Source: Nelumbo lutea (Eukaryota; Streptophyta; Magnoliopsida; Proteales; Nelumbonaceae). From it: a stretch of 64,000 nucleotides of DNA. Every line of letters starts with the position of its first letter. The stretch's first letter is position 1. The translations under genes were made by a program, and so were the position numbers. The notes below the pieces were generated by a model. That model was not told the DNA's origin, searched no databases, and saw only the letters and a program-made list of their open reading frames with translations. The stretch lies in NCBI GenBank assembly GCA_022828595.1, contig JAKGHH010000005.1, forward strand, positions 58,833,655 through 58,897,654, written 5' to 3'. Shown here in pieces: positions 12,821 to 35,500 of the stretch.

Positions 12821-14640
12821 TATTAATAATCAAAGAGTGAATAGCCCCATTTTCTAAACTTTTCATTAAACCTATACTACCCTTATTTGTCTAACTGCTT
12901 AGTTAGCAAGTAAAGTGCAATTTTGTAATTTCTAATTATCAACGTAGTTGTTTCTCCCTAAGACCCTCACTCAATAGGTTTCTCTCTCATAACCAAGAAA
13001 TAAGAGTCTCATGTCTTCCACTACCTCGGAATATTAGTGTATGTCTTTCTCCCTCACACCCTCACTCAATCGATTTCTCTCTTAATTACAAAGGTATTTC
13101 ACATCCTTTTATGAAATCATTGTATGAACAAAAATTGAATCAATGAAAGTATCGAATCTTGAATAGTAACTATATATATATATATATATATATATAGATA
13201 TATTCCTTTCAACCCGTTGTTGATCTCTCTCTCTCTCTCTGTTCGTATTATGTTTTTCTTAATCTCATATGCTTTTGTAGTAGATTGATTGATATTTCGA
13301 GAACGAGGGAAGTTGTTTCGAGTGAGTAACAACTTAATCGAAATTATGAAGTTTGTGGTCCTTTTGTTCTCGATTTCGATCTTAGGAGGTGGAATATGGC
13401 TAGCAAATAGAGCGAGCACTAACAGTGAGAAGTTCCTCGAGAAATCCATTATTGCTCTAGGGGTGTTTCTCATGTTTGTGTCTCTCGCCGGACTCATAGG
13501 TGCGTGCTACAGCGTATCATGGCTTCTCTGTATTTACCTCTGGGTGATGTTCCTCCTCCTTGTTCTTCTTTTCTGCTTCACAATCTTCACTTTCATGGTG
13601 ACTAACAAGGGTGCAGGAGAGGTTCTGTCAGATAAAGGGTATAAGGAGTATAAGCTGGGGGACTATTCAAATTGGTTGCAGAAGAATGTTAACAACAACA
13701 ACAACAACAAAAACCGGAACAAGATCAAGTGTTTCTAGATGAATAGTTATGTCTGCAATAGCCTTAGCGATGCAACCAACACAGTTGAACAATTTTATGC
13801 TCGGCACTTGTCATTGATTCAGGTGTGTAACATCATTTCCTTGTTCATATCGTTTTATATATTCTTTGTGTATAAATTTGAATGTGGGTACTTTTATTTT
13901 TTTCAGATTTTGGTTTTGATTTTTTGTTTTCTGAGCATTTGCCATAATTTCTCAAAGAAACAGAATCTGTTTCATCTATATCTGTTTTTTTTTTTCTTCC
14001 TTTCTCTTTATCAACTTTAGGGATTTTGATCTTGAAACTTTTTGGTAGATCCCTTCCCATTTTTGGATTTCCTACATTTTTCTTCCTGTTTGATAGCATT
14101 ATTCCTTAAAACAGACATTTGAGAAATTTTCCTTCACTTCTTGGTAGAAATCACAGTTGGTTTGGGTATCTCCCATCTATCACCATGACAGTATGACTGA
14201 ATTTTCACTACATTTTTGTAACTGGGTTTATTAGAAAACTATTGATTGAAATATGAATTTTCTTTTTGATTGATTGCTCAACATTGGGTTTGTAAAATAT
14301 TGGTTTGTATCATTTTTCTTGCCATTTCAATTTTGATATCTCAATCTTTCTTGTGATCCCATATAGATTATAAGTTCAGTTTTCTACAATGCACTTTGCC
14401 AGAATGTTGTCCTCTGTTTTCAAGTGTTGAGCCATGAAAATGTCTCATGATATGAGCCATCAGTTTTCTATCCCTCTTGTCTAAGCACACAACGGGCATA
14501 AAGAGGGCATATATGTCATTTACTCTCGTTTCAGAAACTACCCACTTATAAGTTTTAACTGTTCAAAAACTACCCATGAATTATAAATAGTTTTATCTCA
14601 GAGATATTACCACGTGCAAATGCACTTACACGTTTACTGC
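12821..14640 (+). mobile_element. Tandem second Helitron copy carrying a tetraspanin exon
   Basis: The sequence is collinear with copy 1 from its first bases (GAATAGCCCCATTTTCTAAA, then CTTTTCATTAAACC) through the terminal hairpin GTGCAAATGCAC (14614-14625). Where copy 1 ends CTAG, this copy has CTGC (14637-14640), so the terminator is damaged. It abuts copy 1 head to tail with no host spacer. It lacks the 100-bp deletion of copy 1 and has an extra (TA)n near 13170. Each copy is about 1.8-1.9 kb. Confidence 0.7.
13313..13822 (+). pseudogene. Tetraspanin-8-like first exon, captured copy 2, broken
   Basis: The reading frame runs from RVSNNL through a first hydrophobic segment (FVVLLFSISILGGGIWLANR), a second one around ALGVFLMFVSLAGLIGACYS and a third around LWVMFLLLVLLFCF. 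It then enters the large extracellular loop (GAGEVLSDKGYKEYKLGDYS). This is the exon 1 layout of plant tetraspanin 8-like proteins and ends at a CAG/GTGTGT donor. Two lesions are clear. The codon at 13313-13315, where the family starts with ATG, is TTG. A TAG at 13736-13738 replaces the TTG leucine seen in copy 1. No second exon follows, so it is a captured fragment. Confidence 0.85.
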
Positions 14641-17386: not shown

Positions 17387-18190
17387 AGTGGATAAATATA
17401 AGTATTTTATTGGAAACTATAGTAACAACTCATATTATTGAATTAGTCTGCACAAGTACTAAAAAGAGGGATATCGGAAATTGCCATCAAGTAATTACCT
17501 ATATTTATAATATTTGTTATATTTCTCATGTGTCGTATTGGGATTTGAGGTGAAGCAAGGAAATTTTAAAAGAAAAAAAAATAATCAGTTCCATTTCCCT
17601 GAAGGCTAAACCAATTGTACATTCTACCTAAAGCAAGCAATGGGGATAACAGGTTACCAAATTCTGAAAACTATCCAAGGATTAATATCAACCATTTAAT
17701 TTGTTTATTTATTTATAAATAAACTTAATTTTGTTGGAGTTGAGGTAGGCGAGTAGTAAATAATGTTCTAGTAATGAGTTGGATGAACTATATTGGATTT
17801 AACAACTTGCGACTACAAGATGTTAGAGGCCCCAAGCTGATTTTTCAATATGTACTGAGTAGGGGAGATCGAAAGGCAAGTGAACTAAGATAGCAAGAGA
17901 GCTAGAATGTTAGAGTAGGAGCTTTACCTTAGATGGTATGCCTTTAGATACCTACTAGGGAGTGTTGTTGTGCTCTTTGCATGAGGTTGTGTCCCAAGGT
18001 CATCCTCAACAAACCTTCCAGAAGTGTGTGTTCGTTATCTTTGCCCAATGAACCATCCAAATCGATTAGTGATGTAAAAGATGAAGTTCAAGGTAGAGGT
18101 ACGATGCTTTATTTTTATAATTTTTTTAAACTTTTCATTTCATACTTCAATCATTATGATGGCAACCTCCCACGTGCCCACTTACTAGTT
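17387..18190. other. Intergenic stretch
   Basis: AT-rich, with no supported gene. The small open frame near 17981 has no recognisable features. Confidence 0.5.
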
Positions 18191-18345
18191 TATTTAAATG
18201 AGCATTAGGGTCAATACTGTCATTTTCGATTATCATCAATTAAATTGATGAAACTATAAGGGGTATTTTAGTAAATGATATTTTCTATTATTTAGCCTTC
18301 ACTTAATAAATCATGTGCATCACGAATCCCCACTAATATTAATTA
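18190..18345 (+). repeat. Isolated 3' module of family D
   Basis: ATGAGCATTAGGGTCAATAC, AAACTATAAGGGGTATTTTA and CACTTAATAAATCATGTGCA match, in the same order, the 3' part of the family D copy ending at 20168. Confidence 0.6.
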
Positions 18346-18544
18346 AACGATGTATAAAAAATTGGAATGTACATTACTTCAGGAGGACACTAATAAGTTA
18401 CACTATTATGCACATTAATTTGTGGGTTCACATATAATCATCTCATGTGACAATAAGAAATAACCAATTATAATTTACTTCTGTATATTCAATGTTTCGA
18501 TAATTTATATATGATGTAACTATATAAATATAAATTTTATATAT

Positions 18545-20168
18545 ATATATATATATATAATTTATATAGAGAGAGAGATTAAGACAAAGCGGTAAAGAAT
18601 TTTTCTCCTTTTTTTGAATTTTTTGTTTTTTATTCCATGTTATTTTTGAAACAAGCAATGAGATGCACTTTACCAATCACCTAAATAGTCTCTTCTCTTA
18701 AAATTTATCCTAAACTACCTCCCCCACTTTCTCCAGAATTATCTCTAATTCCTAATTATATAATTCCTAATCTCCACAATTATCTCTAATTCCTATTTAT
18801 CCTCTCCCCTCCTTTTTATCTATATCTATCTAAAGAAAGTTTGGATTAAAAATTTTAAGAATTATTTAAATATTCTAACAAAATTATATAATAACTTCAA
18901 AATATTAAAAAAACACAAAAAAATAATTTTATATTTTTACAAAATATATCATGAAATTATGTACTAACAATTTAAATTATGTTTTTTTGGATTATCAATT
19001 TAAATGCTTTTCAAATATTTAATAATATATAATATATTTAAATAAATAAAATTCAAATAAAAAATTTAAATATTTAATAGATTATTTAAATATTTAAATA
19101 ACTAAATATTTATCATAACTATATTTTAAATAGTTAAAATAAAGAAGTTATCTAATAAATAATTTTATATTTTTACAAAATATATCACGAAATTATGTAC
19201 TAACAATTTAAATTATGTTTTTTTAGATCAACAATTTAAATATTTTTCAAACATTTAATAATATGTAATAGCTTTAAATAAATAAAATTAAAATAACAAA
19301 AAAATCAATATTTCATAGATTTTTTAAATATTTAAATAATTAGATATTCATCATAACTAGATTTTAAATCGTTAAAATAATGAAATTATGTAATAAATTA
19401 AAAAAAAATTCTAGAGCAGAAAAAATAATTATAACATAATATTAAAATTAATAATAATTTAATATATTACAAAATTAATAATGAAATTATGTAATAATAG
19501 TATAAATTATGATTTATGGATAATTAAATTCCATAAATAACTAATATTTTAAAATTTAAATATTTTACATATTATTTAAGTATTTACATAACTAGGTATT
19601 TTAAATAACAAAATATTTAACATAACTAGATTTTAAAAAGAAATTATGCAATAAATTTCAAAATTTTCTGAAAAAGTAGAAAAATAACTATAATATAATA
19701 TTGAAATTAATAATAATTTAATATTTTTAAATAATATTGTAAATAACTAATTTCACTTATATCAAGTAATAATTTGAGAAAATAAATTTCAAAAAATTAA
19801 TTTTTATTAATAATAATTTTAAACTCTTAATTTGTATTTATTATATAATTATACATAGTAAAATTAATATTTATTGCATTTCAGTAATTATTTATTTTAT
19901 AAAGGGAAAAATGGTATTTTTATTTTTATTTTCTTTTGATTAAATTTATTTAAATGAACATTAGGGTCAACATTGTTATTTTCCACTGTCATCAAATGGA
20001 AGATTGATTAAATCCATCACAAATTATAAGTGGTGTTTTAGTAAAATTTTAACTATAGAGTAGATTTTAGTAAATCTATGAAATTATAAGGGGTATTTTA
20101 GTAAATGACCATTTTTATTTTTTAGCTTCCGCTTAATAAATCTCATCCACTACATGGGTCTCTGCTAG
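18545..20168 (+). mobile_element. AT-rich Helitron-like element, family D, copy 3
   Basis: It starts after a (TA)n run with GATTAAGACAAAGCGG, shares TTTATTCCATGTTATTTT and CCCACTTTCTCC blocks with the other copies, and ends CATGGGTCTCTGCTAG followed by T. The CTAG end fits a Helitron. A clear hairpin before it is not obvious. The next copy starts immediately. No coding region. Confidence 0.6.
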
Positions 20169-20648
20169 TATATATTAAAACAAAGCGGTCAAGAATTTTT
20201 TTACTTTTTTTGAATTTTTTATTTTTTTATTCCATGTCATTTTTTAAATAACCAATGAGATGCACTTTCCCAATAACCTAAATAATCTCTTATCCTAAAA
20301 TTTCTCCTAAAATACTTCCCCCACTATCTCCAAAATTATCTCTAATTCCTATTTATTTTCTAAATTATCTCTAATTCTTTTTTATCTCCAAAAATATCTC
20401 TAATTTAAATAACTAAATATTTATCATACCTAGGTTTTAAATAATTAAAATAATGAAATCATGTAATAAATTAAAAAAAATTCTTCAAAGTAGAAAAATA
20501 ATTATAATATAATATTGAAATTAATGATAATTTAATATATTATAAAATTAATAATGAAATTATATAATAATAGTATAAATTATGATTTTATAGATAATTA
20601 AATTCAATAAATATTTAATATTTAAATATTTAAATATTTTACATATTA
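20169..20648 (+). mobile_element. Family D copy 4, left part, head to tail with copy 3
   Basis: TATATATTAAAACAAAGCGG begins directly after the CTAG of copy 3. Similarity continues through ATTCCATGTCATTTTTTAAA and stops abruptly at ACATATTAT, where the other copies read on with TTAAGTATTTACA. A matching 3' part reappears at 35530-36233, so the middle may have been split by later insertions. Confidence 0.6.
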
Positions 20649-21315
20649 TGAAGCCTTAAGAGTTTTATAGAAAGAAATCCTCCTAGACTTGAACCATTCA
20701 TAAGCCAAGATTAAAATTTAAACAATAAAGGCAAACCAAGTTTGCCTGTCCACTTCTCTTTATTGTCACTACAAGTTCCGATGATAGAAGACAACAGGAA
20801 AAAGGAAAAACAAAAGAGAAGTAGTGCTGACCAACAGTATCGGAGGATGGTACAGGTCGAAGGTGAACCAACAACGTCAACGGTCGGTGTACTGGGCTTG
20901 ATACTAGGCCATTGACAGCAAAAATAGTGCTAACCATCCTAGATCTGTTTGTAGACGGAGGCGACGTGCCTTCCGCAACCAGCCCAACTACTCTTCCCGC
21001 AGGACGAACACCTCACGACGTAACACATATTCTATCCTTGTCCGCTACACTTGTATGCCTAGTGTTTGTTACTTTGTTTCAAAGATTTCTTTATGAAATT
21101 TTGGATTTCTGATTTGGGGGATGGCTTTGCTTCAGCTGGTAAACGCATTCATACTTCATACCGTTGAACGACTTGGCTGCAAATGGCGACAAAGGCTGCA
21201 AACGCGTTCATACTTCTACGAGGTTTGGTAATTTATGGCTGTCGATCAGGGCGACGCCACACACACATATAGAGAGGAAGTAATAGTAGTTCTTCGATTT
21301 TTGGTCTGATAAATC

Positions 21316-21659: not shown

Positions 21660-24195
21660 GCCTAAATAACACTATTTAAAAGTAATTAAATATAATATTT
21701 TTTTAATCCACATAACTAATGGTATTTATTTAGTTTTTCTAACAATATACATTAACATTATTTCAAATATGTTATTTAATTTAATTATGGTATTAAATTA
21801 CTGTTATTTAATCATGCTATATTTTTATTAATTGTAAAATTTATTTAATTTTGATATTTTGTAATTAAATATATAGCAGTATTTTTAATTAAGGTATTTA
21901 TTATTAATTCCAGTATCTTTTATTTATTGAATTATTGTTATTTAATTGTGGTATTTTTTATTAGATACAATATTTATTATTAATTCTGGTATTTAATTAG
22001 TTTTTTAATCAATATTTATTAAAATAAAGTATTTCTTTCATGGAATTTATTTTTAGTATTAAAATACTATTATATATAAATATCAATATTTTTTAATTAA
22101 GGTATTTATTATTAATTCCAGTATCTTTTATTTATTGAATTATTGTTATTTAATTGCGGTATTTTTTTATTAGATACAATATTTATATTTAATTCTGGTA
22201 TTTAATTAGTTTTTATTAGATACAGTATTTATTTAATTACAGTATTTTTAATTATATAAATAGCAGTATTTTTTAACACTATTTAACAGTAACTAAGGTA
22301 CTTATTATTAGTTACGGTATTTAGTTAATTTTATATTATTAAATAATTAAAATATATGGTATTAAATTTCAGAAATTTGTTTAATCGTGATATTTTATTG
22401 CAACACTTAAGTTTCATATATTTCTTACTTATTTAAATATTTTCAGAAAATAATTTAAATGTGATGTTTTATTGCAATACTTAAACAAATATTTTCTTCG
22501 CAGGGGTCCTGAATATTTAATTAAATATAATAATTAACTTCCTAGAAATTAAATATTTATTTAAAATTTTTGTTGTTTGAAATTTTGTTAAAAAAACGTA
22601 ACTAAATATCCAAAAATTATTTATTTTTTCAAATACTATTACATTAATACTATAATTTTTTCATTTTTTGTAATAATTTTTAATCCACGTTACTAACAGT
22701 ATTTAGTTAGTTTTTTAACAATACACATTAACATTATTTAAATTTAAGTATTTTTTATTAATTAAAGTATTTATTTATTTATGATATTTTTTAGTTAACT
22801 AAATAGCAGTATTTTTTAACATTATTTATTTAATTGTGGTATTTATTAATTACAATATTTATTTAATTATGGTATCTTTTTAATTAAATAAATAGCAGTA
22901 TTTATTAAGTTTTTTAATTAATTAAATTATTTTCTAATAATTGTATTTATCAAAATAGTATTTCTTTTAGCTAACAGTATTTATTTAACTATAGTATTAA
23001 ATTACTGTTATTTAAATTCTGTATTTTTCAATAATTACAGTTTTTATTTCAATAATTATAGTATTTATTTAATTGCAATATTTCAATAAATACCAGAATT
23101 GATAATAAATTACTGTTAATTAATTAAATAATTTAAAGCGTATTCAATGCAATTAAATAACAGTAATTTCGGTATTTATTTAAATAGTAGTAAAATTTAG
23201 CAGTAATACTATTATTTAAATTTAGTGCTTTTTATTAATTAAAAATAGTTCTTATTAATTCCGGTATTTAATTAATTATTTTAACTAATACTATTTATTT
23301 AATTTTTTAACAGTACTCATTAACATCATTTTAAATTATGTTATTTTTTTATTAAATTACTATTAATTGCGGTATAGTTTTATTTATTTATGGTGTATTA
23401 AATTGCGGTATTAAAATACTATTCATTAACACTATTATTTAATTTTATTAAATTACGATTAATTAAAATATATCGCGTTAAGTTTCAGAAAATTGATTAA
23501 TTGTAAACAACTAATAGTGCGGTATAGTTTTATTTAACATACTATTCACTAACACTATTTATCCTCAGTTATTTTTTTATTAAATTACAATTAATTGAGG
23601 TATAGTTTTATTTATTTATTGTGTATTAAATTGCGGTATTAAAATACTATTCATTAACACTATTTATTTAATTTAATTTAATTACTATTAATTAAATTAT
23701 ACGGTATTAAATGTCAGAAAATTGTTTAATTGTGATATTTTATTGTAATACTTAATTTTCATATATCTCTTATTTATTTAAATATTTTCAGAAAATAGTT
23801 TAATTGTGTTGTTTTATTGAAATGCTTAAATAAATATTTTCTTCGCAAGGGTCCTGAATATTTAATTAATTGTAATAATTAAATTCCTGAAAATTAAATA
23901 TTTATTTAAATTTTTTATTTGGAATTTTGTTAAAAAACATAACTAAATATCCAAAAATTATTTAGTTTTTGAATTACTATTACATTAATACACTAATTTT
24001 TTTCATTTTTTGTAATAATTTTGTAATCCACATAACTAATGGTATTTAGTTAGCTTTTTAACAGTATACATTAACATTATCGTAATTCTAGTATATTTTT
24101 ATTAAGTACAGTATTTTTTAATTAACAGTATTAAATTACTGTTATTTAATTACATTATTTTTCAATAATTATAGTATTTATTTAAATAATTACAG
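21660..24195. repeat. Degenerate AT-rich tandem array, left part
   Basis: Long blocks recur in the same order. The block with TTTTCTTCGCAGGGGTCCTG near 22490 returns near 23835. Its start at 22379 aligns with 23724, an offset of 1345 bp. The TAATCCAC...ACTAA...GTATTTAGTTAG block appears near 21713, 22680 and 24027. GTATTTATTTAATT motifs fill the rest. The array resumes at 34679 after the retrotransposon. Confidence 0.75.
24191..24195. repeat. Left target duplication of the Tat element
   Basis: TACAG here and TACAA at 34679-34683 flank the element, a 5-bp duplication with one mismatch. The array reads on across the element, which supports a clean insertion. Confidence 0.75.
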
Positions 24196-25042
24196 TGATG
24201 CAGCACGATCTGGGCACTCCTAGCTAGCTGAAACTTGGCTCCTAGCTATGATAGACGACACCTGAGATGGAGAGGAACGTGAAGGAATCCTGGGGAGCTC
24301 TCCCGGCGGGAACACTTCGATGGCTAAGTTTGAACTTTGAGGAAAACACAAAGAGTTAAGAGTGTTGAAAGTGCTAGCTTCAATACCTTTGCTTCATGAG
24401 GGTCGGGGTCTCTTATACCAAAGCTCAGTCACGTCAGGCGTAACTGCCACTGCCCTAGCTGTTACTGTCAGGGCTGAGGTGGCAAGTGCAGGGTATGGAC
24501 TCGTTAGATGTGCCATGCTTTTTAGAGACGGCAGGCACAACGCCGCCTGGCAAGGGATGCGAGAACTGCCACCGGATCCGGCATGTACGGATGTCAGGCG
24601 GATCTCCCCTGCAGCTTGCTGAGCTACTTTGCACCGAACCGCCTGGGACAGGTTTGCCTTGCACCGAGGTGCCAAGATACGCCGAGGTGCTCGCATTGGA
24701 GGTGAGCCTTAAGCAAGTGTGAACAGGAGTCTCGACGGTGTTGTCCCGAGGTGTTTCTCCCTCGAGATGCTTAGCCAAAAGCCGAGGTGCTCCCTTCTTA
24801 GGAAGGGAGAGCTCGGAGTCCCTTAGGAGGAGCTCGGGTCCCTTTGCACGGGGGGAGCTCGGGGCGCTCCACCCTCAGGCTTGAGGCGAGCTGGGCCTTG
24901 CTTCTCGGCGAGTCGTTTGGTCGGGCCTGGGCGAGCTTGTTTTGTCAAGCTGTGGCCAGGCTGTCGCACTGAGTTGTCACTTATGCCAGGTCATGTCCAC
25001 GTGTCCCCGTGCTACGAGGTCGGACCAAATCACCCTACATCA
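24196..25042 (-). repeat. 3' LTR of the Tat element
   Basis: 847 bp with TGATG...CATCA ends. It is downstream of integrase in the sense of transcription. It carries a minus-strand TATAAGAG at 24410-24417. Open frames inside it are not genes. Confidence 0.92.
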
Positions 25043-25045
25043 ATT

Positions 25046-25059
25046 GCCCCCCACTCCCC
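25046..25059 (-). other. Polypurine tract
   Basis: On the minus strand GGGGAGTGGGGGGC lies a few bases before the 3' LTR, where plus-strand DNA synthesis is primed. Confidence 0.7.
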
Positions 25060-25350
25060 GTGCTAGGGGTCTTGACCCAGCGAGGGGAGTCCGCGGTCTG
25101 TCGGTTAGATTTGGCTCGGGGCCTAAGCTTTCTTGCCCGCCAGCTCATCGGTTGGACCGATTCATTATTTGGCTCTACCAAGCGTAGCCCGAGTCGCGTA
25201 CGGTCTACGTGCGGACGTCACGCGACTTATGGACTTTGCGGACGTCAAAAAATATGCTAAACTGATTTCACCTCGAAGGTCGCACAACCAGTTTTCATGA
25301 GGACTGTCAGATTGTTTTGATCTCAACCGTTGATGCCCGCGTATAGTGGC

Positions 25351-25359
25351 AATAAATAG
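25351..25359 (+). promoter_or_regulatory. Candidate TATA box for the antisense gene
   Basis: AATAAATAG lies on the plus strand about 110-120 bp before the first open frame of the antisense gene and outside the LTR. It could be a promoter independent of the LTR. Only the motif and its position support this. Confidence 0.35.
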
Positions 25360-26275
25360 TGGGGGTCCTAGCCATTTTCCTTCGCCACAAATCCTCAGTC
25401 GTAATCTTGAAATCGCGTCCAAAGCCTCCAGCTCAAGTCAGTTCTTTCCAGTTCAGTCCATCTCTCTTTGGTGAGTCACCCTATCTCTTCTACAGTTCTG
25501 TTAGTTAAGTCTTCCTTTGATAGCCAGCTAGATGAGCCCGAGGTAGGTACCTCGGCTCAGGGTGACCCTACTGGAGTCCAGTTCCCCGAGGCGCAGGAGG
25601 CCTCGGGTAACTTGGCATCCACCTCTCACCGAGGTCGGATGTCGAACAGGTTCGGACCCTCCACCATGACCCTGGAGAGGCTCCGCTACCTTATTCGCCA
25701 GTACAACCTGGCCAGGGAGTACACTTACAGTTTACCTGTGGGTAACTTCCCGTGGGAGAACGGTCTTGATGAGGTCGTAATCTTTCAGGAGCAGCTCATA
25801 GTCGGGCTCCGCCTTCCCTTCCACCAACTCATAGTGGAGATCCTGAACCACTTCAACGTTATGATAGACCAACTTCACCCAAACTCGGTTCATAACGTGG
25901 TCGGGACCATCTCCCTCTGTTACGAGTATGTCTTCCCCCTTGACTTGGACACATTCTATTCCATTCTCACAATCAAGAAGAGTTCTTCATGCATTCTCCC
26001 CAAGCACGGGAGGGCCTATTACTTGTCCCCTTGCCCAGGCTTCAAATTAATGCATAAGCTTCCGAACAAGATTTTGGCTTGGAAGCATGACTACTTCGTA
26101 GTCCGGAACCCTGCGGGGTGGCCCTTCCCTACTCACTAGAGGGCGGCTACCCAAGACCCCGACATTACCCTTGACAAGAAGACAAGGGAGACATTCCAGT
26201 CATGGGCTGAGGTTGGGTGTAGTTACAAGGATTACATCACCGAGAGCATGCTCATTCAGGCCGGCTTGAACCTAG

Positions 26276-26354
26276 GTAGGTAGTTAGTACCTTAGTTGTT
26301 TGGCCTGCTCTTTTTTTTTTTATACTCGAGTACTAATGCCAAGCTATGTTGCAG
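26276..26354 (+). other. Intron 1 of the antisense gene
   Basis: AG/GTAGGT donor, TACTAAT branch-like site near 26331, pyrimidine run and GCAG acceptor. Removal joins the flanking frames without a shift. Confidence 0.75.
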
Positions 26355-26838
26355 GTTCCATGGAGGTGGATAAGCTTAAGGGAGACAGGCTCTTCAAGCA
26401 CATGAAGGGGAGGAAGAAGCAGGCTGCTAAGAGAGCTCGAGTCAAGTCGCCGCCAGCCCCCACTTCCGAGCCCAAGCTTCAACCAGCACGATCTTTCGAG
26501 ACCGAGCTTCCTGGAACTCTTCCGATCATTGACTGGAGGAGTCCATACCACCTCGGGAGCCTGAAACCTCGGCCGAGCCCACTACGAGGGCAATAGTTGA
26601 GCCCGAGGTTGCAACCGGAGCTACTGACGTAGTAGCTAAGGTCTCCGTCGAGCCCATTCGTACAGCCGAGACGACGGTCTCCAGCTCGGGGGGCCCGGAT
26701 GGGGGCCGAAGTATCTTGGTCCCCCAATGCAGCCTTCGAAAAAGCAAAGTGGACGTTTACTCCAATAAAATCTCGGTCTGGGCCGATATGCTCAACCCTG
26801 CTCAGCTCGGAGCCCGAGCTGCTACTCACACTATGGTG

Positions 26839-26909
26839 GTAAGTTCTCCTTTTATTTCTCATGGCTCTCTTATATATACGTTTCTTCAATACTAACCAAC
26901 TTTCTTCAG
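26839..26909 (+). other. Intron 2 of the antisense gene
   Basis: GTG/GTAAGT donor, TACTAAC at about 26890, TTTCTTCAG acceptor. Both flanks are in phase 0. Confidence 0.8.
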
Positions 26910-27562
26910 TTCGAGAGGAACTTGAAGATGGCTCTGACCACCGAGGAGTCGTCCCACGCTGCCCATACCGATCTGAGGGCTGCTTGCAAGCAGATCCACC
27001 GGATGGAGAGCGGCACCATGGCCTAGAGGGGCGTTATTACCGTGCTGACAGCTGAGATGGATGAGCTAGAACGTGAGAAGGACGTGCTGAGGGGCAAGGT
27101 GGAGGCCCTCAAAGTAGAGCTGGAACGTGAGAAGGGTGCATTGGGGGGCGAGCTAGACGCCCTCAGGGTAGAGGCGAAAGGCCTTAAGGATAACAAGGAG
27201 GCCCTCCTGCACGAGGTGGAGTTCCTCAAGGCTGACATCGAGGAAAAGACTGAGATTTTTACTCAGGCCGTAGAAGAGACGAAGATCAAGGCTATCGCGG
27301 AGTACATCCAGTCTGAAAAATTCGATGCTATTCTAGGGGAGGCCTACCTTAAGGGGTTCAAGCTCAGTAGGTGGCTGATAAAGCACACGTACCCCGAGCT
27401 TGAATGAGCGCCATCACCACCTTGCGAATCACGGATGAGATAGCTCATTAAGCCACAAAGGACCCAAATTCAGAGGAGGATGGTGACAAAGAAGCAGACA
27501 CCCCTGATCCGCCTGAAGCTCCCAAGGAGGTCTCGCGCGGAGATGAAGAGCCCCCGAAGTGA

Positions 27563-28194
27563 TTGTCTTTGTATTCTGAGCCTGCGAGCTCAGTCTGTAT
27601 TGTTTTTTTTGTTGAGCACTTTGTACAAAACTTACTTGTTTATGAAATTGACTTTTCTTTTCCAAGTGTTGTTTCATCTGAGTTATCATAGTTGAGTGTG
27701 CGAAGTGATTGACAAAGTAAGGCATAGTGATGCATATGCCCGAACTGTCTTGTGGAGTACACCGAGGTGACTGACATAGTGAGGTGTAGTAATGCATACG
27801 TCCAGACTATCTTGTGGCGTACACCGAAGTGATCGACATAGTAAGGCATAGTAAGGCATATGCCTGAATTGTCTTTTGGTTGTTAGCCGTGGTGAGCTAA
27901 GCATCGCAGAATCTACGGGTCTGCTTGCACCCTCGATACACTATGTATTGTGATGCCGAGCTCCTTGGTCAGCTCGGTGTTTTAGCCCCTTGGCCGGGAG
28001 GGGAGTGGTTTCAACCACCCTTAGAATTTGTTCGTGTCATAGAGGCAGCTAGGTAGCCTTGAGAGTGACTCGTGGTCTGGTCTTGGAGTTCGTCCATGTC
28101 ATAAAAGCGACTGGGTTTTATTGCGTCGAGGTCTCTATTAGCTCAAAATTTTGGCCCTTAGGCTCTAAGAGTGATACGTGGTCCACCCAGTGAT
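27563..28194. other. Spacer between the antisense gene and the end of pol
   Basis: No coding frame survives on either strand. The only structure seen is the 62-bp tandem array at 27698-27885. Confidence 0.5.
27698..27885. repeat. Three tandem copies of a 62-bp unit
   Basis: Units with CATAGTAAGGCATAGT, TGCATATGCC and TGTCTTGTGG recur at an exact 62-base offset, the third diverging. They lie between the converging ends of pol and the antisense gene. Confidence 0.85.
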
Positions 28195-29317
28195 TTATAG
28201 GTAATATTGCCTTAGGTTGACAATATTCCATGCCCGATGTACTTGTTTCCCTTCCAGGGTTTTGAACTCATATGTTCCTTCCCCGAGTACTCACTTTACT
28301 CGGTAGGGTCCTTCCCAGTTCAGACCGAGCTTACCAACACCGAGCTCAGGCACTATAACCTTACGGAGAACCAGGTCGCCAATGCAGAGAGTCCACTTTT
28401 TGACCCTGGTGTTATAGTACCGAGCTACCCTCTGCTGGTAGGCCACAGTCCTGATGTATGCGAGGTCCCGTACTTCATCAAGTAAGTCGAGGTTGGTACG
28501 TAGCTCGTCTTCATTTGCCTTGTCATCGTACACTTCTAATCTCAGCGGGGGGAACTTCGATCTCGGATGGAATGACTGCTTCGGTGTTGTAGGTGAGGTT
28601 AAAGGGGGTTTCTTCTGTGCTGGTCTTTTCCGTGGTACGATAGGCCCATAATACACTAGGCAACTCGTCTGCCCATAGTCCCTTAGCTCGGTCCAGGCGC
28701 GCCTTTAGTCCACAGAGAATAGCTCGGTTCGTGACTTCCGTCTAACCGTTTTGTAATTTGATGTTTTCGAACTTCTTACCATTGTTAGAGATCAGTACCC
28801 GAGGTAATCCGAAATGACACACTATGTTCTTCCAAAAAAAAGTTATGCACATTCTGGGTTGTGATTGTTGTGAGGGGTTCAGCCTCAACCCACTTCGTGA
28901 AATAGTCAACTGCCACCACTAGGAACCTCATTTGCCCTGTCGCTAGTGGGAATGACTCGAGTAAGTCAATCCTCCATTGTGCAAATGGCCACGGGCTAGT
29001 GAGGTATTTTAGGTCGGCGGCAGGACGGTGGTGGATGTTGGTGTGCTTCTAACACTTGTCGCATTTTTTGACGAGCTTGGTCGCATCTGCCTTCATTGTT
29101 GGCCAATAATACCTCTATCGTAGCGCTTTCTGAGTGAGGGCTCTGCCCCCCAAGTGTCCACTGCACAGGCCCTCATGAGTATCAAGGAGGACGAGCTCGG
29201 CTTCAAAGGGTCGCAAGCAGCACAGGTAGGGGAGCGTGTAGCATCTTTGGTATAACCGTCCGTCTATTCTGACGTATTTGGATGCCTGACACTCTACCCT
29301 CCTAGCGGCATTACGAT
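28195..29317 (-). pseudogene. Integrase of the Tat element, broken
   Basis: Minus-strand reading shows a zinc-binding HHCC part (THEGLCSGHLGG, later KKCDKC), the core from QWRIDLLESF through VVAVDYFTKWVEAEP, and a C-terminal GDLVLRK...NWEGPYRV. The enzyme joins element cDNA to host DNA using a D-D-E triad. The second acidic position reads SNNG where the family has an aspartate, so catalysis would be lost. Other breaks: TAG at 29049-29051 (after CDKC), an eight-T run at 28834-28841 that shifts the frame by one, TAG at 28742-28744, and another shift near 28590. Pol appears to end with a TAA at 28195-28197. Confidence 0.85.
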
Positions 29318-30180
29318 CTATGAGGAGGGTCCCATGTAGCAGGAAACTCGTGAGTAGATCAATCCAGCTTGGCTTTGCTTGAACGACGGGAGAGACCTCC
29401 TCTGCCCCCTGAGAATGCTAAGCCGAGGCAAGTTCTCTATATACACAGTCCTCATGGTGTTATCACCAGTGCTGGCTAACCGGGATAGGGCATCGGCCTC
29501 AGCGTTTTCTGACCTCGGGATTTGCTGGATCAAGTGTGACCGAAAGTTAAGTAGAGCTCCTCTTACTTTGGCTAAGTATGCTACCATGGTTGGCTCGCGA
29601 GCTTCATACTCACCCATAACCTAATTGACCACAAGCTAGGAATCGCTGCAGACAACAATGTGTTTGGATTTCACTTCCTTTGCCAGATCCAGCCCTGATA
29701 GTAGCGTCTCGTACTCTGCTTCGTTGTTGGATGCCGCAAACTCAAAGCGTAGTGCGTACTCCAGTTTCACTCTTGGCCTAACTAGGAGAGATGCCGCGTT
29801 GGTTTCTATTTCACGGCGCTCGAGCTCAACCAACCCAAAAACCCCGGGCTCACCCGCATTGGGGGCCTCGTGTTCCACCAGCATGGGGACTTCGAAGCTA
29901 AAGGTGCATTCTACGATGAAATCCGCTAAGGCTTGGACCTTAATAGCAGTTCACGGCTTGTACTGGAGCCCTTACTCACGGAGCTCGATGGCCCACTTTG
30001 TCAACCTTCCCGAGACCTCGGGCTTGAGAAAGACTCGCCTCAGAGCTTTATTGGTAAGCACAACGATGGTGTGCGCTTGGAAGTACGGGCAGAGCTTCCG
30101 GGCTACTATGACTTGTGCATAGGCTAACTTTTCTATCTCTGGGTACCTTGTCTCTGCTCCCTGCAACACTTTACTAACAT
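29318..30180 (-). pseudogene. RNase H region of the Tat element, broken
   Basis: Two parts are visible on the minus strand. The first is an RT-linked segment (SKVLQGAETRYPEIEKLAYA, CPYFQAHTIVVLTNKALR). The second, after a spacer, is a plant-type RNase H (FAASNNEAEYETLLSGLDLA, IVVCSDS, NAEADALSRLAS). RNase H removes the RNA template during reverse transcription. A second RNase H after the RT-linked one is typical of the Tat lineage. In-frame stops: TAA at 29972, TGA at 29951, TAG at 29636 and TAG at 29621. The frame otherwise stays the same from 30460 to 29318, so decay here is by point changes. Confidence 0.85.
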
Positions 30181-31260
30181 AATAAACGGGTCATTGGACA
30201 CGATCTACTTCTCTTATTAGTACCGAGCCGACCACCTCGTCACTTGTCGAGAGGTATAGCTCTAAAACATCACCCTCTTCGGGTCGGGTTAACATCGGGA
30301 TGCTAGCGAAATGCTTTTTGAGCTCATCGAACGCGAGTTGGCACTCTTCAGTACATTCAAAGCCTTTGCTTTTTATGGACTTAAAGAAGGGCAGACAATG
30401 ATCTACCAACTTGGACATGAAGCGGATTAGGGCGGCTAACCGGCCGTTCAACTTCTGAACCTCCTTTAATTTCTGGGTGGCCTCATCTCTAGGATGGCCT
30501 TGATTTTGTCCGGGTTGGATTCAATGTCTCGCCAATTAACGATGTACCCTAGGAATTTACCGGAGGTGACACCGAAGACACACTTGTTCGGATTTAGTTT
30601 CATATTAAATCTATGCAAAATTTCAAAAACTGAATGTAAATCTTGTATTAAAGCATGTGAAAATTGGGTTTGGACAACCATGTCGTCTACATAACATTCT
30701 ACTTTTTTTCCAATTAGTGGCTCAAACAGTTTATTTACAAGTCTTTGAAAAGTTGCCCCAGCGTTTTTCAACCCGAAGGGCATGACCTTGTAACAGTTCA
30801 GGCCAAACTCAATTATGAAGGCAGTCTTCTCTTCATCAGTTGGGTTCATCCTGATCTGATTGTAGCCCGAATAAGCGTCCAGGAAGCTCAGCAACTTGTG
30901 CCTCGAGGTCGTGCCCACTAGACGGTCGATCCTGGGAAGTGGGAAGCAATCCTTTGGGCAAGCTCGGTTCAGGTCGGTGTAGTCAACGCACTTGCGCCAC
31001 TTACCATTAGCCTTTTTCACCAGAACAGGGTTGGCCACCCAGCTCGACTAATGAACTTCCTTGATAAAAACGGCTGCAAGGAGCTTCCTGACCTCCTCGT
31101 CGACTGCCCTCTATCGCTCTGGGGCTAGGTTGCGTTTCTTTTGTCTAACGGGCCTAACTACAGGATCTGTGTTGAGCCTATGAGTTATAATGATGGGGTC
31201 TATGCCGGGCATTTCTGCCGCTGATCATGCAAAAACATCTAATTTTTTGAGTAAGAAACT
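30181..31260 (-). pseudogene. Reverse transcriptase of the Tat element, broken
   Basis: The longest surviving pol frame (31038-30466) has the RT palm: VLVKKANGKWRKCVDYTDLN, FLDAYSGYNQI, FGLKNAGATFQRLVNKLF and the catalytic YVDDM. The connection domain continues after 30460 (KSKGFECTEECQLAFDELKK). RT copies element RNA into DNA in the particle. The catalytic motif is intact. The gene is broken by TGA at 31225, TAG at 31111, TAG at 31048, a one-base loss near 30470 that puts TAA at 30466, and TGA at 30191. Frames on the opposite strand here are shadows. Confidence 0.9.
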
Positions 31261-31391
31261 TACCAGTTGGACTGCAGGGGTTCCTCGATAGAAGCGCCGA
31301 TCTGAAGTACCCGAGTTGGATCCTCTGTCGAAGCCGGAATGGGGATGGTCTCTTTGGTAGGTGCGGCTTGCTCCGCGAACTGCTCCGTAGG

Positions 31392-32810
31392 TCACTCTAG
31401 CTTGAGGTCGTCTACTACCTTGGCCTTTCCGTTGAGGGTGGCTAAGTAGAACTTGCGAGACTCGAGCTGATCGCCTCGTAACACTCCGACTCCAAAGTCT
31501 ATAGGGAACTTCATCGCCATGTCGTAGGTGGAGACTACTACTTGTAAGGTGTGGGTGATGGGACGACCTACCATTGCGTTGTAGGGGGAGGGGGTTGCAA
31601 CCACTAGGAACTCATGATTGAGCCTTACCACACTAGGCCAGGTGCTGATCTCCACCGGTATAGTGACTCTCCCAAAAGGCCTGACCTCCTCACAGCTGAA
31701 TCCCACAAGCAAAGTGTTTGCGGGCTTCAAGTCACTTTCCTGGAGCTTGAGTTGATCGAAGGCCGCCTTGAAGAGAATGTATGTCGAGCTGCCCGAGTCG
31801 ACTGGAACGTGCCTGACCTCAAAGTCATTGATTTTTATCTTTATGACCAGCACGTCATCATGGGGATAATGGACCCCTCGTGCATCATCTTCTGTGAAGA
31901 AGATTGGTTCTTCCACCCTTGGCCTGTTCGGGGGGTTAAGCTCTTCCCTGGTGGCCTCGCGGGCTGATGACCAAGCTGCAGCCGAAGTGCAGCCTGCGAC
32001 TATTGATCCTCCAACAATTACGTGGATGGTCGCCCGGACTGGTCTCTCATGGGGAGGATGCCTCTGCAGCTGTTCTGCTTGTCTGCTGGACTCGGGAGCC
32101 TCTTTATTCTGCTCCCCCTGCCGGCCTGCTTTATTATTATTAATGTTCTGTACAAAATTTCTCAGATATCCACAATGGATGAGTTCTTCTATCTCGTCGC
32201 GGAGGTTTTTACAATTTTCGATACTATGACTGTGATCTCTATGGAAACTACAATACAAATTTTTATTCCTAATAGTGGGATTGGCCTTTATCCGATGTGG
32301 CCACTTCACATATAGGGCGTCCTTGATCACCATGAGTATCTCGACCCACTTTGCATTGAGGGGCGTATAATCCCTTTCTGCTGCCGGAGCTCGGAAAGAC
32401 TGAATTGGCTTTGCCCCCCAAGCTTGGTCCTTCTTCTTCTTGCTGTCACTTGGAACTGGGGGCTCCGATTCCCATTTTCCTTTTTCAAGGGCCAGCTCGC
32501 CCTTTTGGTTGATCTCCTCCTCTGTCCCTATGAATCGATCTGCGAGTTCAAGGAACTCGGTCACGGTCTTGGGTTGGTTGACAACCACGTGCCACTTGAA
32601 CTGCTTGTGGGTGATGCCCCGCTTGACCACAGTGAGCCGAACTACAAGGTCTAGGTCGGGTATCTGCAAGCAAGTGTCATTAAACCGCTTAATGCAGTTC
32701 CGGATGGACTCTCCTTCCCTTTGGACTATGCTAAGTAGGCTCTCTTGGGTCCTCGGGCCGAAGTGTGGGCTACTCCTTTGAAAGTGGTGGAGAAGGCCAC
32801 GCACATGCAA
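31392..32810 (-). pseudogene. Gag C-terminal part and aspartic protease of the Tat element
   Basis: A 472-codon minus-strand frame. It begins in the gag core (ESLLSIVQREGESIRNCIKR, FLELADRFIGTEEE) and passes a zinc-knuckle-like CSFHRDHSHSIENC. It then enters a pepsin-like retroviral protease with VDSGSSTYILF around its active aspartate and MVGRPITHTLQ further on. Gag forms the particle and the protease cuts the polyprotein. This part is nearly clean, but it is cut from the gag start by a frame change or deletion near 32775 and ends in a TGA at 31392, before RT. Confidence 0.88.
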
Positions 32811-33772
32811 GACTCGTTCGCTTTGGCCAGATGCATCTGGGACTGAAAGGCGTCCACGTGGTCATTGGGATCGAAGGACCCATTGTACTTGTCCAGCGGG
32901 GGGAGCTTGAAGTCCCTTGGCAAGGGGACAACAAGGAGCTCTGGTGTCAAGGGGGAGGGAACTGAAAGAAGTGGTGTAACTTTTACCTTGCCCAAACTTA
33001 CATCTACCTTACCTCTGAGCTTGGGCAGGTCGCGAGTGGTAGTTCGGCGAGCTTGACGACACCTTCACAGCTTCTTAATGGGCTCAGCGTTGGTGCTGCT
33101 AGCCTCGGTATTACAGATCTCGATGGGCCCAAGGAAAGGCTCAAACGAATGTAGGTAGCTGCGAACAGAGGGACCTTGTCCCAGGTCGTCGGCCAGCACT
33201 TCGAACTGGTTTTCGGCAAGCGGAGGTTCGAACTGCGAATGCTAAGGTGATATGGGCCTAACCGGCTGGGAAGCCCCCGACCTAACTGCAAGCCGTGAGG
33301 CGGGGGTAGGGGGTCTTTCCTTCCTTCCATGAGATGATATCGAGCTCTCTCCTCGGCGGGAAGGAAGTTCGCTTCGGCGGTGAGGCTTGGTTGGCTGCAC
33401 AGCTGGATGCCGAGGAGGGTGTGAAGGAAACTGTTGCTAATACTGGTATTGGGAAACTTGGTGCAACACTTGCTGTTGGTGGAACTGGAGTTGCTGGAAC
33501 TATTGCATTTGAGCCTGCGTGACTCACATGCACTGCATCAGATCCTCAAGCTGACCTTGACTGGCCACCGGAGGGAGGATGGTGGGTTCAATGAAGGTTG
33601 TTCCAACTACAGAAGGCAGTGGAATAGTCATGGGTGCCACCGTCTAAGGCACATTCAGACTTGGAATCCCGTCCACAAAGAGGGGGACGGTGATCTGCCT
33701 GATGCAGACAGTGGGTAAATGGGGTTGTTCCTTAGGGGTGTTCCGGCGTCCGGTGTTGCTAGAGGAAGCCAT
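32726..33772 (-). pseudogene. Gag N-terminal part of the Tat element, broken
   Basis: One minus-strand frame runs from an ATG at 33772 (MASSSNTGRRN) through a Gln-rich segment to PRDFKLPPLDKYNGSFDPND, the conserved start of the gag core. In-frame stops are TAG 33644, TGA 33524, TAG 33500, TAG 33242 and TGA 33065. Near 32775 the frame changes into that of 31392-32810, and part of the core between them appears deleted. The start follows the primer site by about 70 bp. Confidence 0.8.
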
Positions 33773-33843
33773 AGGTGTCGGTAATGCTGATGAGTTCTTT
33801 GAAGAGAGTTGCACAGAAGTTAGAGGAAGGCCTTTCAAAGCGC

Positions 33844-33861
33844 TTCCCACAGATGACGCCA
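33844..33861 (-). other. Primer-binding site
   Basis: On the minus strand TGGCGTCATCTGTGGGAA starts two bases after the 5' LTR. The TGG opening matches the CCA end of a tRNA. Which tRNA is used was not decided. Confidence 0.7.
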
Positions 33862-33863
33862 AA

Positions 33864-34678
33864 TGATGCAACACGATCTGGGCACTCCTAGATGGCTGAA
33901 ACTTGGCTCCTAACTATGACAGGCGACACCTGAGATGAAGAGGAACGTGAAGGATTCCCGGGGAGCTCTCCCAGCGGGAACACTCCAATGGCTAAGTTAG
34001 AACTCTAAGGAAAACACAGAGAGTTAAGAGTGTTGGAAATGCTAGCTTCAATACCTTTGCTTCATGAGGGTCAGGGTCCTCTTATACCGGAGCTCAATCA
34101 CATCAGGCATAACCGCCACTGCCCTAGCCGTTACTGTCAAAGCTGAGGTGGCAGGTGTGGGCTGCCGCTGCAGGCTACTGCTGTAGGGTACGGACTCGTC
34201 AGGCGTGCCAGGCACAACGCTGCATGGCAAGGAATGCGGACACTGCCACCGGATCCGGCAGGTACGGATGTCAGGCGGATCTCCCCTGCAGGCTACCGAG
34301 CTACTTTGCCTTGCACCGAGGTGCCAAGATACGCCGAGGTGCTCGCACTGGAGGCAAGCCTTAAGCAAGTGCAAACGGGAGTCTCGACGGTGTTGTCCCT
34401 AGGTGTTTCTCCCTCGGGACACTTAGCCAAAAGCCAGGGTGCTCCCTTCTTAGGAAGGGAGAGCGCGGAGTCCCTTTGGAGGAGCTCAGGTCCCTTTGCT
34501 TGGGGCGAGCTGGGCCTTGCTTCTCGGCGAGTTGTCACACCCGCCGAGTCATTTGGTTGGGCCTCGGCGAGCTTGTTACGTCGAGCTATGGCCAGGCTGT
34601 CACGTTGAATTGTCACTTATGCCAGGTCATGTCCACGTGTCCCCGTGCTACAAGGTTGGGCCAAATCACCCTACATCA
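33864..34678 (-). repeat. 5' LTR of the Tat element
   Basis: 815 bp with TGATG...CATCA ends, collinear with 24196-25042 apart from several indels. It is upstream of gag in the sense of transcription. A minus-strand TATAAGAG lies at 34079-34086. Confidence 0.92.
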
Positions 34679-35500
34679 TACAATATTTATTTAATTGTGA
34701 TATTTCAATAAAAACCAAAATTGATAATAAATTACTGTAAATTAGTTAAATAATTTAAAGCACATTTAACACAATTAAATAACAGTAACTTTGGTATTTA
34801 TTTAAATAGTAGTAAAATTTAGCAGTAATTCTATTTTATTATTTTAGTACTTTTTATTAATTAACAATATTTATTATTAATTTTGGTTTTTAATTAATTA
34901 TTTTAACTAACGCTATTTATTTAAATTTCTAGTAGTATTCATTAACATTATTTTAAATATGGTATTTATTTAATTTAATTGTGGTATTAAATTACTATAT
35001 TCAATTGTGGTATAGTTGTATTAATTATAGTATTTATTTAATTATTTTATTTTTTAATTAAATTACTGTTTTTTAATTATGTTATTAAATTACTATGAAT
35101 TACGGTATGTTTTTATTAATTTATTATATTATTTTTTATTAAATTACTAATGATATTGATTTAATGTCAATATTAATTACAATGTTTATTATGTAATTTT
35201 TTATAATTTAATTATGTAAATTTTCATTAGTTATATTATTTATTTCAACTAATACTATTAATTATAGTATTTAATTAATTTTTTAGTTATAGTGTTTATT
35301 AAAACAAATTATTTCTTTAGCTAACAGTATTTATTTAACTAGAGTATTAAGTTATTGTTATTTAATTACAGTATTTTTCAATAATTATAGTATTTATTTC
35401 AACTAATGGTGCTTATTTAATTCATTAACAGTATTGGTTAAGATTCGTTTAAATAAAGTATTTATTTAATTTAATTATCGTATTTTTATTAATTATTTGT
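34679..35500. repeat. Degenerate AT-rich tandem array, right part
   Basis: The segment beginning ATATTTATTTAATTGTGATA and containing GATAATAAATTACTG and AATAGTAGTAAAATTTAGCA matches 23062-23210 in order. It is therefore the continuation of the array cut by the retrotransposon. Confidence 0.75.

What the first reader, a model, noticed from the sequence alone, without database searches (positions are those of the whole stretch)
25411..27562. Intron-bearing gene running antisense inside a retrotransposon
The plus-strand gene between pol and the 3' LTR has two introns with canonical donors, TACTAA-like branch sites and CAG/GCAG acceptors. Both joins keep the reading frame. Introns facing against the genomic RNA cannot be removed from that RNA, so they survive each cycle. 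Antisense extra ORFs with a gypsy-type transposon domain are known in Tat elements. The intron layout and a separate TATA-like motif at 25351 suggest an independent host-style transcription unit of unknown role.
Basis: partly seen in the sequence, partly recalled or inferred. Interest (0 to 1): 0.75.

Follow-up and report, generated by a model that had tools for sequence, protein, structure and literature searches.

The report
Spliced antisense gene in plant retrotransposon
A plant jumping element carries, on the strand opposite to its own genes, a second gene whose two introns have kept their place across quite different element families; this copy is dead, but the pattern suggests that the host's splicing machinery is used to make an accessory protein of unknown job.

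Summary
The window holds an old, broken Tat/Retand-type LTR retrotransposon on the minus strand (LTRs 24196-25042 and 33864-34679). Between pol and the 3' LTR lies a plus-strand gene with a Transposase_28 (PF04195, "TRP28") domain. Antisense TRP28 ORFs are already known in Retand elements; the introns are what may be new. In 39 sibling copies intron 1 keeps its donor GT in 37, branch TACTAAT in 39 and acceptor AG in 35. Intron 2 keeps its donor in 36 of 36 copies with sequence, while its interior is the most divergent stretch measured. Codon periodicity continues through all three exons. Intron 1 recurs at the same place in TRP28 genes only about 30-40% identical (23 of 26 loci tested), and intron 2 in 8 of 30. 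So the introns look old and selected. This copy is dead: start codon lost, stops, frame changes. Splicing is inferred; no RNA was available. The gene most likely makes one TRP28-basic-coiled-coil protein, pieces so far counted as separate ORFs.

The parts
24196..25042 (-). 3' LTR of the minus-strand retrotransposon (TG...CA ends)
   Evidence: match to 33864-34679; 85.2% identity over 806 aligned sites, K2P 0.167
25043..25059 (-). purine-rich tract next to the 3' LTR (GGGGAGTGGGGGGCAAT on the minus strand)
   Evidence: sequence; aligned in siblings; role inferred
25350..25359 (+). degraded TATA box of the antisense gene (CAATAAATAG here; TATAAATA in siblings)
   Evidence: TATAAATA in 35 of 38 siblings with sequence there; 8-nt window at 25351 ranks 29 of 2629 for low divergence
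25373..25383 (+). conserved block 20-30 nt after the TATA box, likely transcription start
   Evidence: windows starting 25373-25375 are among the least divergent of the alignment; start site itself inferred
25507..25509 (+). position of the start codon, lost here (AAG)
   Evidence: ATG in 33 of 37 siblings with sequence there
25507..26275 (+). exon 1, TRP28 domain; in-frame TAG at 26137-26139
   Evidence: PF04195 E 1.5e-9, 38.4 bits against cut-off 26.2; codon-position divergence .123/.088/.226
25777..25956 (+). PF04195 (Transposase_28) match
26276..26354 (+). intron 1, 79 nt, phase 1; branch TACTAAT 26331-26337
   Evidence: 39 siblings: donor GT 37, TACTAAT 39, acceptor AG 35; same site in distant families
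26355..26838 (+). exon 2; frame change between about 26530 and 26600 in this copy
   Evidence: codon periodicity on both sides of the frame change
26405..26446 (+). basic stretch KGRKKQAAKRARVK, nuclear-localisation-like
   Evidence: translation; basic runs after intron 1 in several other families; role inferred
26839..26909 (+). intron 2 as left in this copy: real donor 26839, branch TACTAAC 26890-26896; true acceptor deleted (36 nt missing at about 26902/26903); decoy acceptor CAG 26907-26909
   Evidence: sibling alignment; donor GT 36 of 36, true acceptor AG 32 of 37 siblings with sequence
26910..27562 (+). exon 3; 26 of its first nt are deleted, and 11 codons would be lost if the decoy acceptor were used; TAG 27024-27026, TGA 27405-27407; coiled-coil-like 27027-27404
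   Evidence: the coiled coil rests on Pfam matches all below their cut-offs
27701..27864 (+). tandem repeat, 62-nt unit, 2.6 copies, between the antisense gene and pol
28294..33537 (-). broken gag-pol: RVT_1 in 30466-31038, RT_RNaseH_2 in 30194-30520, RVT_3-like (below cut-off) in 29639-29950, weak rve (below cut-off) in 28788-29048; no Pfam match in the gag-side pieces
33864..34679 (-). 5' LTR of the element

Best explanation
A degenerate copy of a Retand-type LTR retrotransposon whose pol-3'LTR region holds a host-style three-exon gene on the opposite strand. In working elements, host RNA polymerase II starts at a TATA promoter in the internal region about 300 bp from the 3' LTR, the pre-mRNA is spliced at two introns, and one protein is made: TRP28 domain (exon 1), basic nuclear-localisation-like stretch (exon 2), coiled coil (exon 3). 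Because the genomic RNA is the complement of this transcript, the introns are invisible to the spliceosome there and pass through every round of reverse transcription. Unspliced RNA stops at the third codon over the first donor (G|GT AGG TAG), giving a TRP28-only protein without the basic stretch, so splicing may also choose between two products. Shown: element, conserved exons, introns, promoter and start codon. Inferred: transcription, splicing, nuclear entry and a regulatory job.
For: 39 siblings aligned: splice sites and branch of intron 1, donor and true acceptor of intron 2 kept, while the interior of intron 2 diverges at 0.294 against 0.0098 for its donor (34 siblings). Third codon positions diverge most in every exon piece read in the predicted frames.226.235.257.240 against .123/.088.127/.088.173/.155.153/.124. 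23 of 26 distant TRP28 loci have a donor motif at the same place against 122 of 3380 control windows in exon 1; intron 2 with like flanking residues in 8 of 30 by a strict signature. Three NCBI Nelumbo nucifera predicted proteins (P0001, P0002, P0004) by my reading join exon 1 to exon 2 at this site, P0001 in a shifted frame. In another family the gene lies antisense to gag-pro-RT-RH-aRH-INT.
Against: No RNA data. 0 of 39 siblings has all three exons open, so no working copy was seen. 3 of the 26 distant loci (L045, L066, L068) lack the donor motif, and only 17 of the 23 are in phase 1 as scored. The second branch block is not unusually conserved (rank 597 of 2631 windows). P0004 keeps 18 extra residues at the intron 2 place, so its annotators did not splice intron 2 as I do. 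TRP28-like proteins of unknown plants (P0007, P0012) read on past the intron 1 place, so the intron may not be general. Function rests on domain make-up and analogy; the TRP28 model matched no known fold.
Confidence: 0.77

Rival explanations
1. Two or three separate antisense ORFs: a TRP28 ORF ending at the TAG just past the donor, and a downstream ORF starting at an ATG near the start of exon 2. No splicing is needed; the intron-like stretches are spacers.
For: An in-frame stop follows the donor in the window and in most siblings. An ATG lies within about 10 nt of the start of exon 2 here and in several families. A published survey counts TRP28 and Smc-like ORFs separately (PMC11963269, section 11 part 1).
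Against: Donor, branch and acceptor are kept while the interior of intron 2 drifts. Phases match at both joins here and in most distant loci that could be scored. Exon 3 has no conserved ATG at its start.
Confidence: 0.12
2. The antisense transcript acts as RNA (pairing with genomic RNA, feeding small RNAs); the protein is secondary.
For: Proposed for such genes in a review (PMC7264820, passages). None of the 39 siblings has all exons open, yet the promoter region is kept in most.
Against: Codon periodicity shows protein-level selection in the lineage's history. Kept splice sites and reading phases are not needed for an RNA-only role.
Confidence: 0.08
3. A captured host gene whose introns came along and have no role; they stay only because the element's own replication cannot remove them.
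For: A host-like promoter and introns are what a captured gene would bring. Introns on this strand cannot be lost by splicing of the genomic RNA (established knowledge).
Against: Passive carriage does not explain splice sites and branch far less divergent than the intron interior. Three protein searches gave 14 proteins in all, none shown to be a host gene outside elements. It may still be true of the origin.
Confidence: 0.15

Closest known systems
Retand-lineage elements with antisense TRP28 ORFs (Vicient 2025, PMC11963269; abstract, section 11 part 1 and passages seen)
   Same: Antisense TRP28 (PF04195) between pol and 3' LTR; LTR, internal and pol-3'LTR lengths within the published ranges
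   Different: Described there as separate ORFs; a word search found no 'intron' in the main text. Here the ORFs look like exons of one gene
Grande gene23 of maize (Gomez-Orte 2013; paper not held, known only as cited in PMC7264820 and PMC11963269)
   [quoted passage not shown] nuclear protein
   Different: Whether gene23 has introns or a TRP28 domain could not be checked here
Ogre gag-pol intron and EVADE intron (PMC6317226 and PMC12786077, passages seen)
   Same: Introns in plant LTR retrotransposons
   Different: Those introns lie in the sense transcript and control gag-pol products; these lie in the antisense gene
HBZ of HTLV-1 and APH-2 of HTLV-2 (PMC10186651, passages seen)
   Same: Antisense genes with spliced transcripts and nuclear products; HBZ has spliced and unspliced forms
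   Different: Animal retroviruses; their antisense transcripts start in the 3' LTR; HBZ has a bZIP; no sequence relation was sought. Works-like comparison only
Antisense-intron retrotransposition reporters (PMC12786077, passage seen)
   Same: Rest on the same rule that an intron is removed only from the strand it faces
   Different: Artificial and reversed: there the intron faces with the element RNA and is lost; here it faces against it and stays

Membership tests
Retand lineage (Tat, Ty3/gypsy) | Antisense TRP28 ORF between pol and 3' LTR (97% of clusters, PMC11963269) | tested here: met
   PF04195 above its cut-off on the strand opposite to RT
Retand lineage (Tat, Ty3/gypsy) | Extra RNase H (aRH) between RH and INT (PMC6317226; shared with Ogre) | tested here: inconclusive
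   RVT_3 match 20.1 bits against cut-off 21.6, lying between RH and INT; like order in L071 by comparison with the window's pieces
Retand lineage (Tat, Ty3/gypsy) | LTR 315-1,194 bp, internal region 7,380-12,869 bp, pol-3'LTR 2,933-6,566 bp (PMC11963269) | tested here: met
   LTRs 847 and 816 bp; internal about 8.8 kb and pol-3'LTR about 3.25 kb from coordinates
Retand lineage (Tat, Ty3/gypsy) | Reverse transcriptase groups with Retand in a tree | not tested
   No reference set of named RT sequences was at hand
Retand lineage (Tat, Ty3/gypsy) | Primer binding site type | not tested
   Sequence next to the 5' LTR seen, tRNA not assigned
Spliceosomal introns | GT...AG with a branch site, conserved across copies while the interior is free to change | tested here: met
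   exception: branch block 2 not unusually conserved
Spliceosomal introns | Removal from RNA | not testable with these tools
   No reads; some protein models join at the site but they are predictions
HBZ-like antisense retroviral genes | Sequence homology to HBZ or APH proteins | not tested
   Considered as a working analogy only

The most novel reading that the evidence does not exclude
Retand elements across flowering plants carry one ancient, spliced antisense accessory gene. TRP28, basic and coiled-coil (Smc-like) ORFs now annotated apart are its exons. Its introns are kept by selection because splicing switches between a TRP28-only protein and a full nuclear form, a plant retrotransposon counterpart, reached independently, of HTLV's spliced antisense regulator.
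Probability: 0.3. Interest if true: 0.82.

Novelty: new variant of a known kind. Interest (0 to 1): 0.62.

Why it matters
Antisense genes of Retand elements have been described as ORFs of unknown role. If they are one spliced gene, ORF surveys cut it into pieces and misname its coiled-coil exon; the protein can be studied whole; and the elements become a natural case of introns that ride safely through reverse transcription. It also makes the role of these genes testable: the junctions give unambiguous RNA markers that separate real antisense mRNA from genomic RNA or DNA contamination.

Tried and rejected
A working gene in this copy: rejected.

Precise intron loss as proof of splicing: pursued and weakened. 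A search for the exon 2-exon 3 junction gave 1 place, with 2 mismatches (control 0): L073, of a related subfamily, lacks intron 2 exactly, with an open frame over the join. With L073 as query 40 places were scored of 741 candidates. 32 split at the junction with 59-100 extra nt; 4 of these 32 were read and carry the intron. The other 8 are L073 itself, L084, and six that were read: four carry the whole intron (one with a mutated acceptor) and two only its 3' part after deletions. L084 lacks the intron but is 3 nt short of the spliced join. Both losses can be explained by deletion between short GGTG(A) repeats at the two splice sites, so they do not show that spliced RNA was copied back. A small tree put L073 with the window family, but weakly (74/89; 1 of 14 inner branches well supported).

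The exon 1-exon 2 joined junction gave 10 places, all with 2 mismatches (control 1); their context was not examined. The matching count of intron-1-bearing sites did not complete, nor that for the intron 2 donor.

Relatives in viral contigs: none. The donor test was written after seeing the sequences, so it is post hoc; 4 of the 30 loci were dropped (L043, L054, L061 no anchor; L070 spurious). The window and L036-L040 were left out of the divergence counts. The table was one base out of frame and was discarded; one search replaces it.

Full report
What is there. The window lies in an 844 Mb genome of 63 contigs. The nearest named proteins are Nelumbo nucifera predictions, so the host is probably a lotus; this is inference. 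A minus-strand LTR retrotransposon spans 24196-34679. Its LTRs are 847 and 816 bp, 85.2% identical over 806 sites, K2P 0.167. With substitution rates recalled from the literature (7e-9 and 1.3e-8) that is about 6-12 million years. RT scores 112.6 bits for RVT_1. RH just passes its cut-off; the RVT_3 match and the integrase core are below theirs. A plus-strand gene, whose TATA box lies about 310 bp from the inner edge of the 3' LTR, holds PF04195 at 38.4 bits against a cut-off of 26.2.

Donor, branch and acceptor of intron 1 (26276-26354) are as stated and the join keeps the frame in phase 1. The donor of intron 2 (26839) is real. The copy itself is broken in several places, and its start codon reads AAG where 33 of 37 siblings with sequence have ATG.

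Siblings. A genome search (40 candidates scored of 3846) returned 45 matches at 40 places, one of them the window; the 39 siblings were fetched and aligned. Intron 1: donor GT 37 of 39, TACTAAT 39 of 39, acceptor AG 35 of 39. Intron 2: donor GT 36 of 36 with sequence, true acceptor AG 32 of 37 with sequence. The true acceptor TTTGTCAG|GCGAACTCC is missing from the window through a 36-nt deletion, by my reading between two TCTT repeats; the window's CTTCAG corresponds to codons 10-11 (Leu-Gln) of exon 3. CTTCAG itself is kept in 25 of 37 siblings with sequence.

Rates. On 34 siblings (the window and the five fragmentary loci L036-L040 left out) pairwise divergence by codon position was .123/.088/.226 in exon 1.127/.088/.235 and .173/.155/.257 in the two parts of exon 2, and .153/.124/.240 in exon 3. 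Intron 2 interior.294; its donor.0098. Intron 1 interior.156; its donor.025; its branch block.0074. Among 2629 windows of 8 nt the branch block of intron 1 ranks 5th, the TATA box 29th and donor 1 33rd for low divergence; among 2633 windows of 6 nt donor 2 ranks 18th and donor 1 69th. Against the reading, the second branch block is not unusual (rank 597 of 2631 windows of 7 nt). The copies themselves have decayed: with the frames as aligned, 1 of 39 has exon 1 open with ATG and the right phase, 13 have exon 2 open, and 0 have all three open. The constraint therefore reflects the elements that spawned them.

Distant families. PF04195 gave 150 scored places of 7025 candidates, with a match in 0 of 14 control genomes; the best 30 were held as loci. 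Their exon 1 pieces are about 27-66% identical to the window. Exon 1 could be anchored in 26 of 30. A donor motif lies within 26 nt of the anchor in 23 of 26 (not in L045, L066, L068), against 122 of 3380 control windows in exon 1 (motif chosen after inspection). As scored, 17 of the 23 are in phase 1; of the other six, L044, L048, L049 and L069 have a second GT four bases on that would be in phase 1, L055 was anchored out of register and L060 is frameshifted. Joined at these sites, several give an M and a basic stretch soon after the join. Intron 2, by a strict signature, appears in 8 of 30; the other 22 gave nothing by it. One distant locus, L049 (34% identity in exon 1), lies antisense to gag-pro-RT-RH-aRH-INT (L071); a second stretch tested, L072 next to L064, showed no pol.

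Protein models. P0004 reads across intron 1 in frame, P0002 also joins there, and P0001 joins there in a shifted frame, all by my reading. P0013 and P0014 run across the exon 2-exon 3 join, but such models could come from intron-less copies. P0004 keeps 18 extra residues at intron 2. P0007 and P0012, from unnamed sources, read on past the intron 1 place; P0003 ends about 20 residues after it and cannot be judged. I cannot say that the intron is general in plants.

Intron losses. Two copies of the L073 subfamily lack intron 2, one exactly and one 3 nt short. The short direct repeats at the two splice sites explain both without splicing.

Known and new. Antisense TRP28 ORFs in Retand elements are known (PMC11963269: abstract, section 11 part 1, passages), as is an antisense gene with its own promoter and a nuclear product in maize Grande (PMC7264820: abstract, passages). 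Introns are named for Ogre and EVADE (PMC12786077, PMC6317226, passages). I found no report of introns in the antisense gene in the search listings, nor the word intron in the main texts of PMC11963269 and PMC7264820. The primary papers on Grande gene23, on extra ORFs (Steinbauerova 2011) and on Retand (Kejnovsky 2006) are not held, so they may already describe it.

Mechanism. Shown: conserved promoter, start, exons and introns on the strand opposite to the element. Inferred: transcription by host polymerase, splicing by the host, a protein of TRP28, basic stretch and coiled coil, and a regulatory role. The coiled coil rests on weak Pfam matches, none above its cut-off. The TRP28 model (pLDDT 80.3) has no match among known folds. 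The comparison with HBZ of HTLV-1 (PMC10186651, passages) is one of working, not of descent.

Mended against the calls: the identity range of loci that show the donor (about 30-40% for the distant ones, since the 27% locus L068 missed the motif), the phase count, the count of places around L073, the reading of P0003, and the position of the promoter.

Noticed in passing
L073:2020-2574 (G000:C2:112754000-112758500) and L084 (G000:C1:156634800-156635120): Two antisense-gene copies lack intron 2, one exactly at the splice junction and one 3 nt short; the other 38 scored relatives carry the intron or part of it (32 judged from alignment gaps, 4 of these also read; 6 more read). GGTG(A) repeats at both splice sites make deletion the simpler cause.
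   Followed up: partly
25472-25479: A TGAGTCAC motif in the 5' leader of the antisense gene looks kept in most siblings by eye; it resembles a bZIP/AP-1 site (recalled), not tested.
   Followed up: no
11737-14638 and 18180-20667: Further pairs of direct repeats spaced about 1.3-1.9 kb (and shorter), probably other repeats or LTRs.
   Followed up: no
23057-23356 and 34679-34978: The flanks of the element share an 86% identical 300-nt stretch, as if it had inserted into or near another repeat.
   Followed up: no
TRP28 domain, window:25654-26136: A fairly confident predicted fold (pLDDT 80.3, pTM 0.75) with no match among solved structures or predicted viral proteins.
   Followed up: partly
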